From positions 1-60,413 of the forward strand of contig CACNCK010000007.1 of assembly GCA_902618945.1 (NCBI GenBank): a stretch of DNA of 60,413 nucleotides, given 5' to 3'. This DNA comes from an uncultured SAR86 cluster bacterium. Its GTDB lineage: Bacteria > Pseudomonadota > Gammaproteobacteria > Magnimaribacterales > Magnimaribacteraceae. The notes beneath the pieces are model-generated. The model was not told the origin of the DNA, made no database searches, and was given only the letters and a program-made list of their open reading frames with translations. A program made the translations under genes and the position numbers. Within the stretch, counting starts at the first letter, position 1, and each line of letters opens with the position of its first letter. This document shows, piece after piece, positions 42,873-49,500 of this stretch.

Positions 42873-44060
42873 TTAAGCTCCTTGAATTTTTGGTTCTTTA
42901 GGCATTCCTAAAGCTCTTTCACTGATAATATTTTTTTGTATCTGATTTGTTCCACCACCTATGATCAGACCAAGGAAATACATATACGTCATTTGCCAAG
43001 CTCCTTCGTCTCTTAAGTGTGGACTATCTTCATAAAGTGTTCCTAATTCACCCATTGCGTCAATCGCTAGTCCCTCAAGTTCATGTCTCAATTCAGTTCC
43101 TTGAAGCTTAACAATAGATTTTGCTAAGTTTGCATCTTGATCTTTATTAATTTGAGAGGAAAGAATTCTAAGAGCATTTGATTGCTGGGCCATCAATCTT
43201 CCTTGAATGGATAAAAGTCTATCTCTGAATATTGGTTTATCTATTACCCTTTGACCATCTATAGTTTCGCTCTTCATAAGATCAATGAGAGAATTCAATC
43301 TATTCTGAGTAACGTTTGGATCTGCTAAAGAGCCTCTTTCATGTCCAAGAGTTGCATTCGCAACTTTCCAACCTTCTCCTCTTTTTCCGACAATGTTTTC
43401 TGCAGGTATTCTGACATCAGTAAGAAATAGTTCATTAAAATCTGAATCTCCAGTCATCTGCTTAATCGGTCTTCTATCGATACCTTCAGCATCCATAGGC
43501 ATCAGAAGATAGCTTATTCCTTGATGTTTCGGTGCATCTGGTTCCGTCCTAACTAGGATAAAACACATTTGCGAGAGATGTGCAGTACTAGTCCAAATCT
43601 TCTGTCCATTTATAACCCATTCATCTCCATCAAGTTCAGCCTTAGTTTGCAAACTCGCTAGATCACTTCCTGAATTTGGTTCTGAATAACCCTGACACCA
43701 TAATATTTCACCTCTTAGGGTGGGTTTAATATATTTTTGTTTTTGCTCTTCTGTGCCTAAAGATAATAAAGTCGGAACAAGCATTTGAATACCTTGACCT
43801 CCAGCTGGTTTAGGAATTGGAGATTTAGCAAACTCCTCTGCGATAATTCTTAATTTGATTATGTCCATGTCTCCGCCATAACCACCATATTCTTTGGGTA
43901 TAGATCTTGCGAAGTAACCGTGGTCAATCAATTTCTGTTGCCATGCAACTCTACTCTCACTTCTTGCAGGACCAGTTAATTTTGTATTTTCATTTTCTTT
44001 TACAAAGTTAATAACCTCAGCCCTAAAGTCGTCATATTGAGGTCCGTATTCTAGATCCAT
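42873..44060 (-). CDS. Acyl-CoA dehydrogenase, catalytic subunit
   Basis: 395 residues. It introduces a 2,3-double bond into an acyl-CoA, passing electrons to ETF. GYSEPNSGSDLASLQTKA and VINGQKIWTSTAH bind FAD and substrate, and LGHERGSL (E241-R242) is at the position of the catalytic Glu of isovaleryl-CoA-type and steroid-type enzymes. The usual YEGT loop is GGGTNQIQ, without Glu. It is transcribed first, followed after 2 bases by the subunit lacking the base. Bulky or branched substrates are inferred. Confidence 0.9.
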   Translation of the reverse strand: MDLEYGPQYDDFRAEVINFVKENENTKLTGPARSESRVAWQQKLIDHGYFARSIPKEYGGYGGDMDIIKLRIIAEEFAKSPIPKPAGGQGIQMLVPTLLSLGTEEQKQKYIKPTLRGEILWCQGYSEPNSGSDLASLQTKAELDGDEWVINGQKIWTSTAHLSQMCFILVRTEPDAPKHQGISYLLMPMDAEGIDRRPIKQMTGDSDFNELFLTDVRIPAENIVGKRGEGWKVANATLGHERGSLADPNVTQNRLNSLIDLMKSETIDGQRVIDKPIFRDRLLSIQGRLMAQQSNALRILSSQINKDQDANLAKSIVKLQGTELRHELEGLAIDAMGELGTLYEDSPHLRDEGAWQMTYMYFLGLIIGGGTNQIQKNIISERALGMPKEPKIQGA

Positions 44061-44140
44061 GAATATCTCCTTTTACATAAATAATTCTCATAGAATAAAG
44101 TTTGTCTTAATAAGAAACAAGCGGATTTGTATGACCTTGA

Positions 44141-44899
44141 TTAATAAATATAAGGAAATATCGCTTTTCTGTTCTTTGGATAATTAGGGATATTAGATTT
44201 AGACCAATTATGATTTGATCTAGCTCTTGGAACTAAGTTTGCAAATGTCCAAATAAAAAAAACTAAACCAGAAGGACTTAAAGTAAGAATTGCCCATCCA
44301 AGCCACTCAATAATCTCTCCAAAATAATTTGGACAACTTATATATCTATACAAGAACCCTTGAGGAGAATAGTAACCTTCACCATTATTTTTGCGTAATT
44401 TAATCAATATATCATCTGATTTAATATTGATGACCATGCCCGAAAAAAATAAAATTATGCCAACTATAAATGGTATGGATATCAGCCAGTCGTCGTTGTA
44501 ATTTCCAAATATAAATATCCATATGCATTGCAAAGAGATATTTACTGAATTAAAAAATAAGGCCATAGAAACCACACCAACTGCCATTGACTTACCTTTC
44601 AATTGTGCCCTGAAAGGCCAAATCATTGTTCTATGAATATAGTGAGATAACCATAATAAGCAAAAGATGATTTCAGTTTGTCCTATTTTGTTGCGAAATA
44701 GGACTATAAATATAAGCATTCCAATTATTGTTGGAGATTCCATAATAATCCATCCAATTCTAGAAGGAATTTTGTAATTGGAATCTAAAGTAAAGTATCT
44801 TCCATAAGGAGCATTTTTATAGAACAAGGCGATAAAAACTAGAACAGCAATTGTCGACCAAAGAAATAAGAAAGGGAAGAAGATATCCTCTAAATTCAT
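44141..44899 (-). CDS. Steroid 5-alpha-reductase-like membrane enzyme
   Basis: 252-residue, six-to-seven-helix membrane protein of the SRD5A family (NADPH-dependent reduction of delta-4 double bonds). Equivalents of the SRD5A catalytic pair are E54 (IIMESPTI) and Y87 (HYIHRT). The C-terminal NADPH/substrate block is nearly canonical: INIKSDDILIKLRK, then YRYISCPNYFGEIIEWLGWA, FANLVPRARSNHNW and YPKNRKAIFPYI. Eukaryote-like SRD5A1/2 proteins occur in some marine Gammaproteobacteria. The substrate could be a steroid or another enone lipid. It adjoins the ACAD pair. Confidence 0.88.
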   Translation of the reverse strand: MNLEDIFFPFLFLWSTIAVLVFIALFYKNAPYGRYFTLDSNYKIPSRIGWIIMESPTIIGMLIFIVLFRNKIGQTEIIFCLLWLSHYIHRTMIWPFRAQLKGKSMAVGVVSMALFFNSVNISLQCIWIFIFGNYNDDWLISIPFIVGIILFFSGMVINIKSDDILIKLRKNNGEGYYSPQGFLYRYISCPNYFGEIIEWLGWAILTLSPSGLVFFIWTFANLVPRARSNHNWSKSNIPNYPKNRKAIFPYIY

Positions 44900-44940
44900 A
44901 TTAAGAGAATAACAGGATAAAAACTATTCAGGTATTCTTA

Positions 44941-45129
44941 TTAAATTGAAATGCCTAGCATTAATGCAAAAGAAATGATGGTCAATGAAACTGATAAGAC
45001 TATGTATAACGAGGTTATCAATCTATCTATCCACAGATAATTGAATGTCTCTGTAAACTCTATTGTGTCAATGCTTTTTACTGCCATCGGCTGGCCTGAA
45101 TGTTTATTTTTTCTATATATATCTTTCAT
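44941..45129 (-). CDS. SOS-box-controlled small single-pass membrane protein (putative)
   Basis: 62 residues from ATG 45129, or 48 from an internal ATG at 45087. The N-terminal half is soluble (SIDTIEFTETFNYLWIDR) and one membrane helix (about 39-60, TSLYIVLSVSLTIISFALML) ends the protein. A perfect LexA box abuts the first ATG and overlaps a promoter whose start would make that ATG leaderless; the internal ATG would have a leader of about 40 bases but only a weak AGG. Family not recognised. Size and topology recall SOS-induced division inhibitors (SidA, YneA-like) or toxins (TisB), by analogy only. Confidence 0.6.
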   Translation of the reverse strand: MKDIYRKNKHSGQPMAVKSIDTIEFTETFNYLWIDRLITSLYIVLSVSLTIISFALMLGISI

Positions 45130-45148
45130 ACTGTATAAATATACAGTA
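45129..45148. promoter_or_regulatory. Perfect LexA (SOS) box
   Basis: TACTGTATAAATATACAGTA is a perfect palindrome with 9-base arms (45129-45137, 45140-45148) and fits the gammaproteobacterial LexA consensus CTGT-N8-ACAG at every fixed position. On the minus strand it covers a -10 TATATT (45138-45143). Confidence 0.9.
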
Positions 45149-45165
45149 CTTATGATTTTTTACAA
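45138..45165 (-). promoter_or_regulatory. Promoter overlapping the LexA box
   Basis: Read on the minus strand: -35 TTGTAA (45160-45165), 16-base spacer, -10 TATATT (45138-45143). Transcription would start at about 45130, beside the first ATG of the small membrane protein. LexA bound at the box would block it. Confidence 0.6.
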
Positions 45166-45252
45166 TACTTAATAATAAATGTTTGAAATATAGGCTTTTC
45201 GTGGGAACATAAATTCTCATATTTAAAGGTAAACAATACTGGGGAGAATTGA
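45149..45252. other. Intergenic region before the DUF3604 genes
   Basis: About 100 AT-rich bases between the LexA box and the first DUF3604 gene. Apart from the minus-strand -35 element, only the ribosome-binding site GGGGAGAA at about 45240-45247 is evident. The LexA box lies 105 bases from the plus-strand start and could in principle also affect that gene. Confidence 0.5.
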
Positions 45253-47319
45253 ATGAGCGTAATAATAAGAACCTTTCTGATAGCTCTTTTGTTTGCTGCA
45301 ATAATTTTTATTTTAGGTGCAAATAATATTTTTTCCATAAAAGATGATGTTGTAGATTTCTCTATAGAAAAAACCCCAAGGATCAAAGAAATTTCAAGTA
45401 ATCAGAATAAAGATGCTTTCTTTGGTGATCTTCATGTTCACACGATGTATTCTTTCGATGCCTTTATATTTGGAACAACCGCATCACCTGATGATGCATA
45501 CAGATATGCTAAAGGAGGTGCAATTAAACATCCTCTGGGATTTGACATGCAACTTGATGATCCTTTGGATTTTTATGCTGTTACAGATCATGCTGCTTGG
45601 CTGGGGATGTTGCCGGCATATGCGGATCCCTCTTCTAGACCGGGTAAGTTAGATTTTGCTTCAGATCTTCATGGATTAAATGATCCTGAAAATTTAAACA
45701 CGAACACATTTGTTAGGCGAGCTGGATTATTCGCTAACCTAATAACAAATGAATTAATTGAACCCTCAAAGAATCCTATAAAAATGCTCGGTGCTTATTT
45801 GCAGGAGGACACGGTTTATGGGACAAGGGCATACGATAGAGAAACTCATCACACTGCTTGGAGAGATATAGCAGAAGCTGCTGAAAGGCATAACAACCCT
45901 GGAGAATTTACTACGTTCATAGCATATGAATTTACTTCAAGCGGCCCAGGGCAAAGTAATCTTCATAGAAATGTTATTTTCCGAGATAACAAGGCTCCCA
46001 TTCAGCCTTTCTCAATCATAGATTCTAGTAATCCTGAGGATTTATGGGATTGGATGGATAACCTAAGAAACCTTGGAGTTGAAAGTCTTGCAATTCCTCA
46101 TAACTCAAATGGATCAAATGGACAAATGTTCCAACTTGTAGATTGGGCAGGAAATCCAATGGACGACGACTATGCTTCGAAAAGAATGAGAAACGAACCA
46201 TTAGTCGAGATTACGCAAGTTAAGGGGACATCGGATACTCATCCACTTCTTTCACCAGGAGATAAATGGGCAGATTTTGGAATTATGAATAATAGAGTAG
46301 CATCTCCATTTTATTCCAGCCCAACAGGCAGTTATGTAAGGAACGCTTACTTAAGAGGCCTTTCATTAGATTCTGAATATAAAATAAATCCCTATAAATT
46401 TGGTCTTGTGGGTGCGAGCGATACTCATACTGGGGCAATATCTGATAAGGAATCAGATTTCCATTCAAAAATAGGTATTCTCGATGGTACACCAGAATTG
46501 AGAGGTGCAGCCCCTCTTACGAAATCTTTTAAAGAGCAAATAGAAGGCTCCGGAGCGAATGTAATTATTAATGGATATAAAGAAATTGGTGGTCAAGAAT
46601 ATATTGATACAGGCTATACTGAATGGGGTGCATCTGGTCTTGCAGCTGTATGGGCTGAAGATAACACCAGAGAATCTATCTATAACGCATTCAGAAGAAA
46701 AGAAACTTTTGCTACAACCGGAAGCAGAATTAAAGTGAGATTTTTTGGAGGATATGAAATAGATGATGTCTTTAATAAGGAAGATCCTATAAATTATGCA
46801 TACTTAAATGGGGTAACAATGGGTTCTGATTTATTTCAGTCTGAGAATAAAATTCCTCAATTCATGGTTTGGGCATTAAGAGACTTAAAAAGGGCACCTT
46901 TAGACAGGGTTCAGATAATTAAAGGATGGACTGAGTTGAGTGGAAAGCCTCACGAAAAGATATATGACGTAGCATGCGCAGATGGCAGAAGGCCTGATTC
47001 AAAGACAAAACTTTGTAGGGATACTCGAGCTAAGGTTAACTTAAATAACTGTAGGATATCTAAAAATTTGGGTGCCGACGAACTTAAAGCAGTATGGCAA
47101 GATCCTGATTTTGATCCAAACTTGAAAGCTTTTTATTATGTGCGAGTTTTAGAAAATCCTACTTGTAGATGGTCGTCATGGGATGCAATAAAATCTGGAG
47201 AGATTCCCAGAGCAGACCTCCCTGCCACGATACAAGAAAGAGCTTGGAGTTCACCTATCTGGTACATTCCAGACAATGAAGGTATCACAATAGGTAATAT
47301 TTTACCTGATGATATTTAA
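45253..47319 (+). CDS. DUF3604 protein (PHP-like), membrane-anchored paralogue 1
   Basis: 688 residues. An N-terminal hydrophobic helix (about 5-26) without a lipobox suggests a signal anchor. The domain is PHP-like metallohydrolase: FFGDLHVHTMYSFDAFIFGT (HxH), FYAVTDHAAWLG, IPHNSNGSNGQMF, LVGASDTHTGA and ATTGSRIKVRFF. The C-terminal part has four conserved Cys (CADGRRPDSKTKLC and two more). Biochemical activity of DUF3604 is not established. It is followed after about 100 bases by a close paralogue. Confidence 0.9.
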   Translation: MSVIIRTFLIALLFAAIIFILGANNIFSIKDDVVDFSIEKTPRIKEISSNQNKDAFFGDLHVHTMYSFDAFIFGTTASPDDAYRYAKGGAIKHPLGFDMQLDDPLDFYAVTDHAAWLGMLPAYADPSSRPGKLDFASDLHGLNDPENLNTNTFVRRAGLFANLITNELIEPSKNPIKMLGAYLQEDTVYGTRAYDRETHHTAWRDIAEAAERHNNPGEFTTFIAYEFTSSGPGQSNLHRNVIFRDNKAPIQPFSIIDSSNPEDLWDWMDNLRNLGVESLAIPHNSNGSNGQMFQLVDWAGNPMDDDYASKRMRNEPLVEITQVKGTSDTHPLLSPGDKWADFGIMNNRVASPFYSSPTGSYVRNAYLRGLSLDSEYKINPYKFGLVGASDTHTGAISDKESDFHSKIGILDGTPELRGAAPLTKSFKEQIEGSGANVIINGYKEIGGQEYIDTGYTEWGASGLAAVWAEDNTRESIYNAFRRKETFATTGSRIKVRFFGGYEIDDVFNKEDPINYAYLNGVTMGSDLFQSENKIPQFMVWALRDLKRAPLDRVQIIKGWTELSGKPHEKIYDVACADGRRPDSKTKLCRDTRAKVNLNNCRISKNLGADELKAVWQDPDFDPNLKAFYYVRVLENPTCRWSSWDAIKSGEIPRADLPATIQERAWSSPIWYIPDNEGITIGNILPDDI

Positions 47320-47418
47320 TCCTTAATTTAATTGAATTTTTTTCTATAAATTTTTTGATGATTACCTTTCCAAGCTCTAAGTAAATTGTTAAATTAATCT
47401 CTCTTTGTGGGGAGATTT

Positions 47419-49500
47419 ATGGGTAACTTTCAAAAAGTCATTTTTGGCTTATTTTTAATTTTTGGCCTTTGGAGCTGTACTTCTCCTGACAGTGTAGTTG
47501 ATTACACGAATGACCTTGTTGTTCCTGACCCTGAGCCTGGATCTACTCCTGGATATAATCCGAATAGAAATGTTTATTTTGGAGACCTTCATGTACATAC
47601 AAAACATTCATTTGATGCATATATTTTTGGAACTACAGCAACACCTGATGATGCATACGAATACGCCAAAGGAAATGCCATACAGCATCCTTTAGGTTAT
47701 GACATGCAACTCAGAGAGCCTTTAGATTTTTATGCAGTGACTGATCATGGATTTTTATTGGGAAGTGTCGAAGATTGGGCAAATCCAAATAATGGTAAAG
47801 AAGGCACTGAACCATTCCATAACTTAAATGCTCCTGAGAATTTAAACCAAGAATCAGTAGCCGCCCGATCTAGGCTTTTTCAAGACTATGTCAGAAATAT
47901 TGCACAATTCAGCAATATCTGGACACGCACGATAGCTTACTTCACAGGAGATACAGCAAGAGGTTCAACTCTCTATGATGTAGATGTTCACAGATCTGCA
48001 TGGAAAGATGTGATATTGAGTGCACAAAGACACAATGATCCTGGGAAATTCACTACCTTTGTTGCATATGAATATACAGCTTCAACTACTAGATCATCCA
48101 ATACTCAAGGTGCTTCAGACCTTACTTGTTGGTTAACTGGCACATGTGGATCTGATGGTTTTCCTCCATTTGAAAATGCTAATTTACATAGAAACGTAAT
48201 TTATAAAGGAAACAAATTTACCGTAGAGCCATACACCCGACTTAAGTCAGTTAATCCAGAAAAGCTTTGGACTTGGATGGATGATCTAAGAGACAGAGGA
48301 GTTGATACGATTGCCATACCCCATAACTCGAATGGATCAAATGGACAAATGTTTGAAATGGAAAACTGGGAAGGTCTTCCAATTAGTACTCAATATGCAG
48401 ACTTTAGAATGAGGAATGAACCATTAGTTGAGATGACTCAAGTTAAGGGAACTTCTGAAACTCATCCGATCCTATCGCCTGATGATGAATGGGCTGACTT
48501 TGAAATCATGTGGCAAAGAGTTGGAAACTCATCTTACAGCCGTCCGTTCGGAAGTTATGTTAGGCAGGCTTACTTAGATGGATTAGGTTTGGAAGAAGAA
48601 AGAAGAGGTAATCCATATAAATTCGGTATGGTCGGAGCCAGTGATACTCATACAGGAGCGATATCTGATGATGAATCTGACTTCCATTCTAAAGTTGGTA
48701 TCTTGGATGGAACGGCAGTAGCAAGAGGATCAGTTCCAATATCTGATCAGCAAGTGCAAGACTTAACTGGCGGTAATGCGATTAGGCAACTAGCTTTCAA
48801 GAAAATAGGAGAGAGAAATTTTAATAATGCTGTCTTTAATACATGGGGAGCCTCAGGCTTAGCTGCAGTTTGGGCAGAAGAAAATACAAGAGATTCTATT
48901 TTTGATGCCTTCCGCAGAAAAGAGACTTACGCTACATCCGGCAGCAGAATTAAGCTTAGATTCTTCGGAGGTTACAATTTTGATAAGTCTTTATTAGATA
49001 GAGCTGATCTTGTAAAGGAGGCTTATAAAAAAGGAGTGCCCATGGGACAAGATTTGGAAGCCTCTCAAGGCACTGCTCCTTCTTTCCTTATATGGGCAAT
49101 GAGAGACAAAAATGCAGCTCCTTTACAAAGAGTACAAATCATAAAAGGTTGGGTAGATAGAATATCCGGACGTCCACATGAACAAGTTATAGATGTGGCA
49201 TGTTCAGATGGTTTAACCCCTGATCCTATTACGAAAAGATGCCCAGATAATGATGCTTTAGTGGATATTTCTGATTGCTCTATAAGCTCAGATAGGGGAG
49301 CCAATGAAATTAAAACTGTTTGGACTGACGATTCTTTTGACTCTACAGTCAAGTCTTTTTATTATGTAAGAGTATTAGAGAACCCTAGCTGCAGATGGTC
49401 TACTTGGGATGCCGTAAAAAATGGTACGAGACCAAGAGAAGATTTACAACCAACGATACAGGAGCGGGCGTGGTCCTCTCCAATTTGGTATTCATATTAA
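47419..49500 (+). CDS. DUF3604 protein (PHP-like), lipoprotein paralogue 2
   Basis: About 693 residues from ATG 47419 (GGGGAGA ahead; an in-frame GTG lies 12 bases upstream). A lipobox ending in Cys (GLWSC) implies lipid anchoring. The same metal motifs as paralogue 1 occur: GDLHVHTKHSFDAYIFGT, TDHGFLLG, IPHNSNGSNGQMF, GASDTHTGA. Relative to paralogue 1 it has an insert around residues 235-260 containing two Cys (LTCWLTGTCGSDG). The stop lies 27 bases before an acyl-CoA dehydrogenase gene, suggesting cotranscription. Confidence 0.9.
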   Translation: MGNFQKVIFGLFLIFGLWSCTSPDSVVDYTNDLVVPDPEPGSTPGYNPNRNVYFGDLHVHTKHSFDAYIFGTTATPDDAYEYAKGNAIQHPLGYDMQLREPLDFYAVTDHGFLLGSVEDWANPNNGKEGTEPFHNLNAPENLNQESVAARSRLFQDYVRNIAQFSNIWTRTIAYFTGDTARGSTLYDVDVHRSAWKDVILSAQRHNDPGKFTTFVAYEYTASTTRSSNTQGASDLTCWLTGTCGSDGFPPFENANLHRNVIYKGNKFTVEPYTRLKSVNPEKLWTWMDDLRDRGVDTIAIPHNSNGSNGQMFEMENWEGLPISTQYADFRMRNEPLVEMTQVKGTSETHPILSPDDEWADFEIMWQRVGNSSYSRPFGSYVRQAYLDGLGLEEERRGNPYKFGMVGASDTHTGAISDDESDFHSKVGILDGTAVARGSVPISDQQVQDLTGGNAIRQLAFKKIGERNFNNAVFNTWGASGLAAVWAEENTRDSIFDAFRRKETYATSGSRIKLRFFGGYNFDKSLLDRADLVKEAYKKGVPMGQDLEASQGTAPSFLIWAMRDKNAAPLQRVQIIKGWVDRISGRPHEQVIDVACSDGLTPDPITKRCPDNDALVDISDCSISSDRGANEIKTVWTDDSFDSTVKSFYYVRVLENPSCRWSTWDAVKNGTRPREDLQPTIQERAWSSPIWYSY

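What the first reader, a model, noticed from the sequence alone, without database searches (positions are those of the whole stretch)
44941..45165. SOS-controlled single-pass membrane micro-protein
A perfect 20-base LexA palindrome overlaps a TTGTAA-N16-TATATT promoter on the minus strand and abuts a 62-codon ORF that ends in one membrane helix. The ORF is not a family I recognise. The layout (LexA box on the promoter, tiny membrane protein) is that of SOS division inhibitors or TisB-type peptides. Two starts are possible: the first would be leaderless, the internal one (45087) gives 48 residues.
Basis: partly seen in the sequence, partly recalled or inferred. Interest (0 to 1): 0.72.

Follow-up and report, generated by a model that had tools for sequence, protein, structure and literature searches.

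The report
SAR86 SOS-controlled tail-anchored membrane microprotein
A tiny, unnamed membrane protein of ocean bacteria of the SAR86 group sits directly under the DNA-damage switch LexA, and may pause cell division while damaged DNA is repaired.

Summary
The box 45129-45148 is TACTGT-N8-ACAGTA with symmetric 9-bp arms (the central AA breaks the palindrome). The host assembly (82% complete) has four exact sites, against 0.04 expected: before lexA, recA, umuD and this ORF. The 62-aa protein is real: 24 of 35 genomes of its SAR86 family hold it full length, with pN/pS 0.06-0.32 in eight chosen pairs. In 24 of 24 the box's last base is the A of the first ATG, and a TTG-N16-18-TATAWW promoter puts the transcription start within a few bases of it. 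So the first start is used and the mRNA is probably (nearly) leaderless. The protein has a conserved 18-residue N-terminal motif, a variable linker and one C-terminal membrane helix; no accepted Pfam, NCBIfam, PHROG or PDB relative was found. SulA was found in 0 of 203 SAR86 genomes. Two other SAR86 families have a different SOS-boxed small protein instead. Most likely function, inferred only: a lineage-specific SOS division inhibitor working like SidA, SosA or YneA; homology to these was not tested directly. A TisB/DinQ-type toxin is less likely.

The parts
45129..45148 (.). LexA (SOS) box TACTGTATAAATATACAGTA; overlaps the start codon by one base
   Evidence: half-sites invariant in 24 of 24 homologues
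45160..45165 (-). -35 hexamer TTGTAA
   Evidence: a TTG-starting hexamer at spacer 16-18 in 24 of 24 homologues, taken as the best of spacers 15-19
45138..45143 (-). -10 hexamer TATATT inside the LexA box
   Evidence: A of ATG is the 9th base after the -10 in 24 of 24
44941..45129 (-). 62-aa microprotein ORF, first ATG at 45129
45076..45129 (-). conserved N-terminal motif, residues 1-18 (M[KN]DxYxxN[KR]xSGxPMAx[RK]), 5 positive and 1 negative residue in the window protein
44947..45021 (-). C-terminal membrane helix, about residues 37-61, preceded by conserved W33, D35, R36
44141..44899 (-). downstream gene, Steroid_dh family (PF02544), 41 bases after the ORF; possible second cistron
45253..47319 (+). 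divergent DUF3604 gene; no sign that the box serves it

Best explanation
Shown by sequence: a short conserved gene with one of the four exact SOS boxes of its genome (the others: lexA, recA, umuD). Inferred with high confidence: LexA bound to 45129-45148 covers the -10 and the start site and silences it; after DNA damage RecA triggers LexA cleavage, and a leaderless or nearly leaderless mRNA (0-4 bases) is made and translated from ATG 45129. Inferred with moderate confidence: the protein is anchored in the inner membrane by its C-terminal helix, with the N-terminal part in the cytosol. Inferred as most likely function (about 50%): it binds a divisome membrane protein (FtsW or a partner is the first candidate) and delays division until LexA is restored, doing the job of SulA, which was not found in SAR86.
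For: Four exact extended boxes against 0.04 expected, the other three before lexA, recA and umuD. Box and ATG fused in 24 of 24 homologues, half-sites invariant, while the 30 bases at -50 to -21 before the box keep only 52% mean identity. pN/pS pooled 0.24 for codons 2-15 and 0.45 for 16-62 (pS near saturation); 0.06-0.32 over the whole ORF in eight chosen pairs. Gene order conserved; box and ORF persist without the Steroid_dh neighbour in 2 of 24 loci (L032, L033). SulA in 0 of 203 SAR86 genomes, with E. coli ringing among the 14 control genomes. Membrane helix: block means of pLDDT 89-95 over residues 31-60. Precedent: small SOS membrane proteins SidA (two-hybrid with FtsW and FtsN) and YneA (FtsW) block late division; ChiZ and SosA act late and are predicted, not shown, to bind FtsW (PMC4211646 and PMC13396833, passages only).
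Against: No direct evidence for a division target. In YneA and SosA the part needed for toxicity lies beyond the helix; here almost nothing follows the helix. Conservation round the membrane helix is not significantly one-sided (p 0.07). Nine of 35 family genomes show neither the gene nor its Steroid_dh neighbour; loss and incompleteness cannot be told apart. Transcription start and LexA binding are not measured. The net charge before the helix is only 0 to +3, so the N-in topology rests on the near lack of charges behind it. The model is weak outside the helix (pTM 0.40; residues 1-30 at pLDDT 57-66).
Confidence: 0.5

Rival explanations
1. A TisB/DinQ-like SOS peptide that inserts in the inner membrane, lowers proton motive force and promotes dormancy.
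For: Small, SOS-boxed, one hydrophobic helix. DinQ (27 aa) depolarises the membrane (PMC3567139, passages).
Against: TisB and DinQ depend on transcript processing and antisense RNAs acting upstream of the coding part; here the predicted leader is 0-4 bases and no Rfam RNA reaches its threshold on either strand of 44000-46500. Residues 1-18, outside the helix, are as strictly conserved as the helix start. No Pfam toxin family at E <= 1.
Confidence: 0.13
2. A membrane anchor or adaptor for the repair or translesion machinery, or for a protease or replication factor, not a divisome inhibitor.
For: Strictly conserved N-terminal motif outside the helix; the other exact boxes of the genome lie before lexA, recA and umuD. 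In other SAR86 families a boxed small protein is soluble, and 19 of 21 scored sequences of family f2 end in a QLEFSF-like motif that looks like a sliding-clamp motif (resemblance recalled).
Against: No partner known; the anchor points to a membrane target; no homology between the f2/f4 protein and this one was detected (profiles of each found nothing convincing in the other's families), so its role need not be the same.
Confidence: 0.25
3. A leader cistron whose role is to put the downstream Steroid_dh and acyl-CoA dehydrogenase genes under SOS control.
For: Downstream gene 41 bases away, same strand; no terminator-like site found in 44050-45400.
Against: In 2 of 24 loci Steroid_dh is missing but box and ORF stay; the protein itself is under selection; I know of no link of these enzymes to DNA damage (not searched).
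Confidence: 0.07
4. The 48-residue product from the internal ATG at 45087 is the functional protein and residues 1-14 are untranslated.
For: M15 is invariant in 24 of 24.
Against: Codons 2-15 have the lower pN/pS (0.24 pooled, against 0.45); P14 uses all four codons with the residue invariant; the distance from the -10 to ATG1 is fixed in 24 of 24.
Confidence: 0.03

Closest known systems
SidA of Caulobacter crescentus
   Same: SOS-controlled small inner-membrane protein
   Different: 29 aa; interaction with FtsW and FtsN shown for SidA, nothing shown here; sequence relation not tested (SidA sequence not fetched)
SosA (Staphylococcus), YneA (Bacillus), ChiZ (Mycobacterium)
   Same: small single-TM proteins induced by DNA damage
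   Different: YneA and ChiZ carry a LysM domain beyond the helix and SosA an extension needed for toxicity; here almost nothing follows the helix and the conserved motif precedes it
TisB and DinQ of E. coli
   Same: SOS-controlled, hydrophobic, tiny
   Different: 29 aa (TisB, recalled) and 27 aa (DinQ), processed transcripts and antisense RNAs; here a predicted leader of 0-4 bases, 62 aa, conserved part outside the helix
SulA of E. coli
   Same: role proposed: SOS division arrest
   Different: SulA is soluble and targets FtsZ (recalled); no SulA match in 203 SAR86 genomes
leaderless lexA mRNA of Mycobacterium tuberculosis
   Same: SOS gene whose translation start equals the transcription start (PMC2897130, passages)
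   Different: there lexA of an actinobacterium, measured; here a microprotein, predicted, with the operator running into the start codon

Membership tests
LexA/SOS regulon | operator of the type found before lexA and recA of the same genome, over the promoter | tested here: met
   same TACTGT-N8-ACAGTA as lexA, recA, umuD; -10 inside the box
LexA/SOS regulon | operator conserved with the gene in relatives | tested here: met
   24 of 24 full-length homologues
LexA/SOS regulon | LexA binding and induction by DNA damage | not testable with these tools
   needs binding assay and RNA data
Small membrane SOS division inhibitor (SidA/SosA/YneA kind) | short protein with a single membrane helix | tested here: met
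   61-62 aa; maximal 19-residue hydropathy 2.0-2.6 in all 24; one long helix 15-61 in the model
Small membrane SOS division inhibitor (SidA/SosA/YneA kind) | blocks division, binds FtsW/FtsN or partner | not testable with these tools
   no complex prediction on hand; no experiment
SulA (PF03846) | match to the family model | tested here: not met
   not among the Pfam matches of the ORF; 0 of 203 genomes
TisB/DinQ type I toxin-antitoxin | antisense RNA against a processed leader | tested here: inconclusive
   predicted leader 0-4 bases; no Rfam match at gathering score; an undescribed antisense RNA cannot be excluded
Known protein family | match in Pfam, NCBIfam, PHROGs or PDB | tested here: not met
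   NCBIfam and PDB none; Pfam Imm58 best E 0.035 in 7 of 21 members, under its cut-off; PHROGs phrog_6743 E 0.0046 in 1 of 21 members

The most novel reading that the evidence does not exclude
SAR86 has a minimal SOS regulon (lexA, recA, umuDC and one lineage-specific small effector). In this family the effector is a tail-anchored, leaderless division-arrest protein of a new family; in other SAR86 families a non-homologous soluble small protein, perhaps a sliding-clamp binder, fills the same slot, so the target of the SOS checkpoint was switched within one order.
Probability: 0.35. Interest if true: 0.8.

Novelty: new member of a known kind. Interest (0 to 1): 0.58.

Why it matters
SAR86 is among the common surface-ocean bacteria, lives under sunlight and is hardly cultured (recalled). 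In the held open-access library, SAR86 with 'SOS response' gave 0 papers, SAR86 with 'leaderless' 0, and SAR86 with LexA 1 paper, on Novosphingobium (listing only); subscription papers are mostly not held. A set of exact SOS boxes before three textbook genes and one unknown membrane microprotein gives a direct candidate for the checkpoint effector. The fixed overlap of operator, -10 and start codon is a very tight way to make a damage-induced mRNA that is probably leaderless.

Tried and rejected
Weak tblastn matches with a stop inside (G026, G029, G009, G033, G007, G021, G013, G011; E 2.9e-4 to 0.07) were not recovered by the profile at E <= 0.1 and were rejected. The profile search of the order also gave matches at E 0.0017-0.093 in 9 of the 168 genomes of the other families (7 of f2, 2 of f4), partial or with stops in the frame for the most part; rejected. 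The class-level search (369 genomes, own included) gave 3 genomes outside the order at E 0.0055-0.0081, all to the helix part inside frames of 300-363 aa; rejected. Viral contigs: 39 stretches matched a pattern, none a relative (one scan). One-sided conservation of the membrane helix was tested and is not significant (p 0.07). The box serving the DUF3604 gene: no plus-strand promoter-like site at the box. A second partial copy in G020 (L126) looks by eye like the g2 sequence L027 and may be contamination (G020 is listed at 4%). Fold search and the PADLOC library were not run.

Full report
Check of the observation. The minus-strand ORF 44941-45129 encodes 62 residues. The box at 45129-45148 has both half-sites TACTGT and ACAGTA and symmetric 9-bp arms; its centre AA is not self-complementary, so it is not a perfect 20-base palindrome. 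Its last base is the A of the ATG. In the host assembly (1.37 Mb in 30 contigs, 82% complete) the exact extended pattern occurs four times, against 0.04 expected from a first-order model. The other three sites lie before lexA, recA and umuD: the ORFs were read, and NCBIfam gives lexA 8e-57, recA 6e-168 and the UmuD-type Pol V subunit 1.5e-42. Against this: the shorter core CTGT-N8-ACAG is not enriched (9 found, 5 for the backward control; about 11 expected), and with up to two mismatches the extended pattern is rarer than its backward control (37 against 83). So only exact sites are telling. In 10 family relatives the exact pattern occurs 2-4 times each, its backward control 0 times in 9 and once in 1.

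Relatives. tblastn in 101 genomes (own and 100 relatives) found 24 full-length homologues, all in the host's family f1 (35 genomes held), over 7 genera, 44-100% identical to the window protein; G031 has a piece cut by a contig end, and G020 a second, partial copy at a contig end. A profile search of the 203 genomes of the order gave the same set; in the 168 genomes of the other three families the best match has E 0.0017, which I do not accept. Of 19 named loci, 15 are titled SAR86 cluster and 4 Gammaproteobacteria bacterium. In the 11 family genomes without a full gene, the Steroid_dh neighbour was found in 2, and both loci are cut by a contig end: G031 and G014, judged from the locus length. 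So no intact locus without the gene was seen, but 9 genomes show neither, and loss cannot be excluded there.

The box-start fusion. In 24 of 24 homologues the half-sites are invariant and the box overlaps the ATG by one base; on the coding strand the centre is ATATTTAT in 21 and ATAAATAT in 3, which both give a TATAWW -10. A hexamer beginning TTG lies 16-18 bases before it in 24 of 24, chosen as the best match among spacers 15-19, so somewhat favoured by the choice. Mean identity is 99% in the box, 67% in the 20 bases before it and 52% in the 30 bases before those (the printed label says -50..-1 but the script averaged -50..-21). The A of the ATG is the 9th base after the -10; with the usual start 5-9 bases after the -10 (recalled rule) the leader is 0-4 bases (inference). 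In the same genome lexA has 6, umuD 18 and recA 40 bases between box and ATG. In two genera of family f3 the box is fused to the ATG of what is by eye lexA (14 loci, 7 of 7 genomes of g9 and 7 of 9 of g13; none of the 24 genomes of g12 and g17).

The protein. Selection acts on the protein: pN/pS pooled over all pairs is 0.24 for codons 2-15 and 0.45 for codons 16-62 (pS near saturation); for the whole ORF in the eight pairs that I chose it is 0.06-0.32. Invariant residues are M1, D3, N8, P14, M15, A16, W33, D35, L37 and Y42; residues 19-32 are variable. AlphaFold2 from 19 sequences gives one helix from residue 15 to 61, block means of pLDDT 89-95 over residues 31-60, but only 57-66 over residues 1-30, pTM 0.40. 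Hydropathy maxima are 2.0-2.6 in all 24; at least 22 of 24 have no charged residue behind the most hydrophobic stretch (one has a K/R, one a D/E). N-in, C-out is inferred. No accepted relative in Pfam, NCBIfam, PHROGs or PDB (best sub-threshold hits in the membership table), none in viral contigs.

Neighbours. In 24 of 24 loci a DUF3604-like gene lies upstream and divergent, at varied distance; in L032 another 239-residue ORF lies between. Downstream, Steroid_dh is seen in 21 of 24 (missing in L032 and L033; L031 ends too early), and an acyl-CoA dehydrogenase-like ORF, named by its likeness to the window gene, in 21 of 24 (L031 ends too early; in L023 and L025 my script kept another ORF there). 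In some loci a short basic ORF lies between; one such peptide matches DUF7230 at 1e-15. No terminator-like site was found in 44050-45400, so read-through is possible.

Other SAR86 families. Boxes in f4 and f2 precede a different small soluble protein with the motif AF[KEQ]YF. Its profile (10 seed sequences) matched 81 of 203 genomes at E <= 0.01 (72 f2, 8 f4, 1 weak f3) and 0 of 35 of f1. Of 30 loci read, 28 have an exact box near the start and 2 were not scored by my filter. Of the 30, 10 are the seeds and L192 was also first found through its box; the other 19 came in through the profile, and 17 of these were scored, all with a box. In 19 of 21 scored f2 sequences the protein ends in a QLEFSF-like motif, in 0 of 7 of f4. 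From memory this resembles sliding-clamp motifs of Hda and Pol IV; not tested. So the f1 membrane protein and the f2/f4 soluble protein were not seen together in any of these genomes. For f3 no boxed small protein was seen in the few genomes read (G036, G039, G045).

Function. SulA is found in 0 of 203 SAR86 genomes, while E. coli rings among the 14 control genomes. [quoted passage not shown] YneA binds FtsW TM7, and ChiZ, SosA and SidA are predicted, not with high confidence, to bind FtsW (PMC13396833, passages). By this analogy a division inhibitor is my best reading, at about 50%. A TisB/DinQ-type toxin is less likely, because those rely on transcript processing and antisense RNA (PMC3567139, passages) and this gene has almost no predicted leader. 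A repair or replication adaptor at the membrane is the main rival.

Verdict. An SOS-boxed, conserved, unnamed single-pass membrane protein; by sequence I put SOS control and coding at about 0.95. Its action is inferred.

Noticed in passing
L190-L219 (SAR86 families f2 and f4), also L144, L145, L147, L156: A second SOS-boxed small soluble protein (49-79 aa as listed, motif AF[KEQ]YF) without detected homology to the first; 19 of 21 scored f2 sequences end in a QLEFSF-like, clamp-motif-like tail (resemblance recalled). Matched in 81 of 203 genomes, 0 of 35 of the host family.
   Followed up: partly
L062-L075 (family f3); L116, L120 (family f4): What is by eye lexA has the box fused to its start codon (probably leaderless lexA).
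   Followed up: partly
f1 genomes: Box centres look gene-specific: TATATAAT type for lexA, TATATATATA for umuD, TATAAATAAA or TATAAATGAA for recA, TATATTTATA for the microprotein; genes were read only for part of the sites.
   Followed up: partly
G035, G038, G056, G044 (family f2): Exact boxes were read before recA, umuD and the soluble small protein but none before lexA (one further site in G035 was not read); whether lexA has an imperfect box or is missing was not checked.
   Followed up: no
L032 and L033 (G020, G024): Steroid_dh is absent between microprotein and acyl-CoA dehydrogenase.
   Followed up: no
window 45253-49500: Two tandem DUF3604-like genes; the second (47407-49500) resembles the first by eye.
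   Followed up: no
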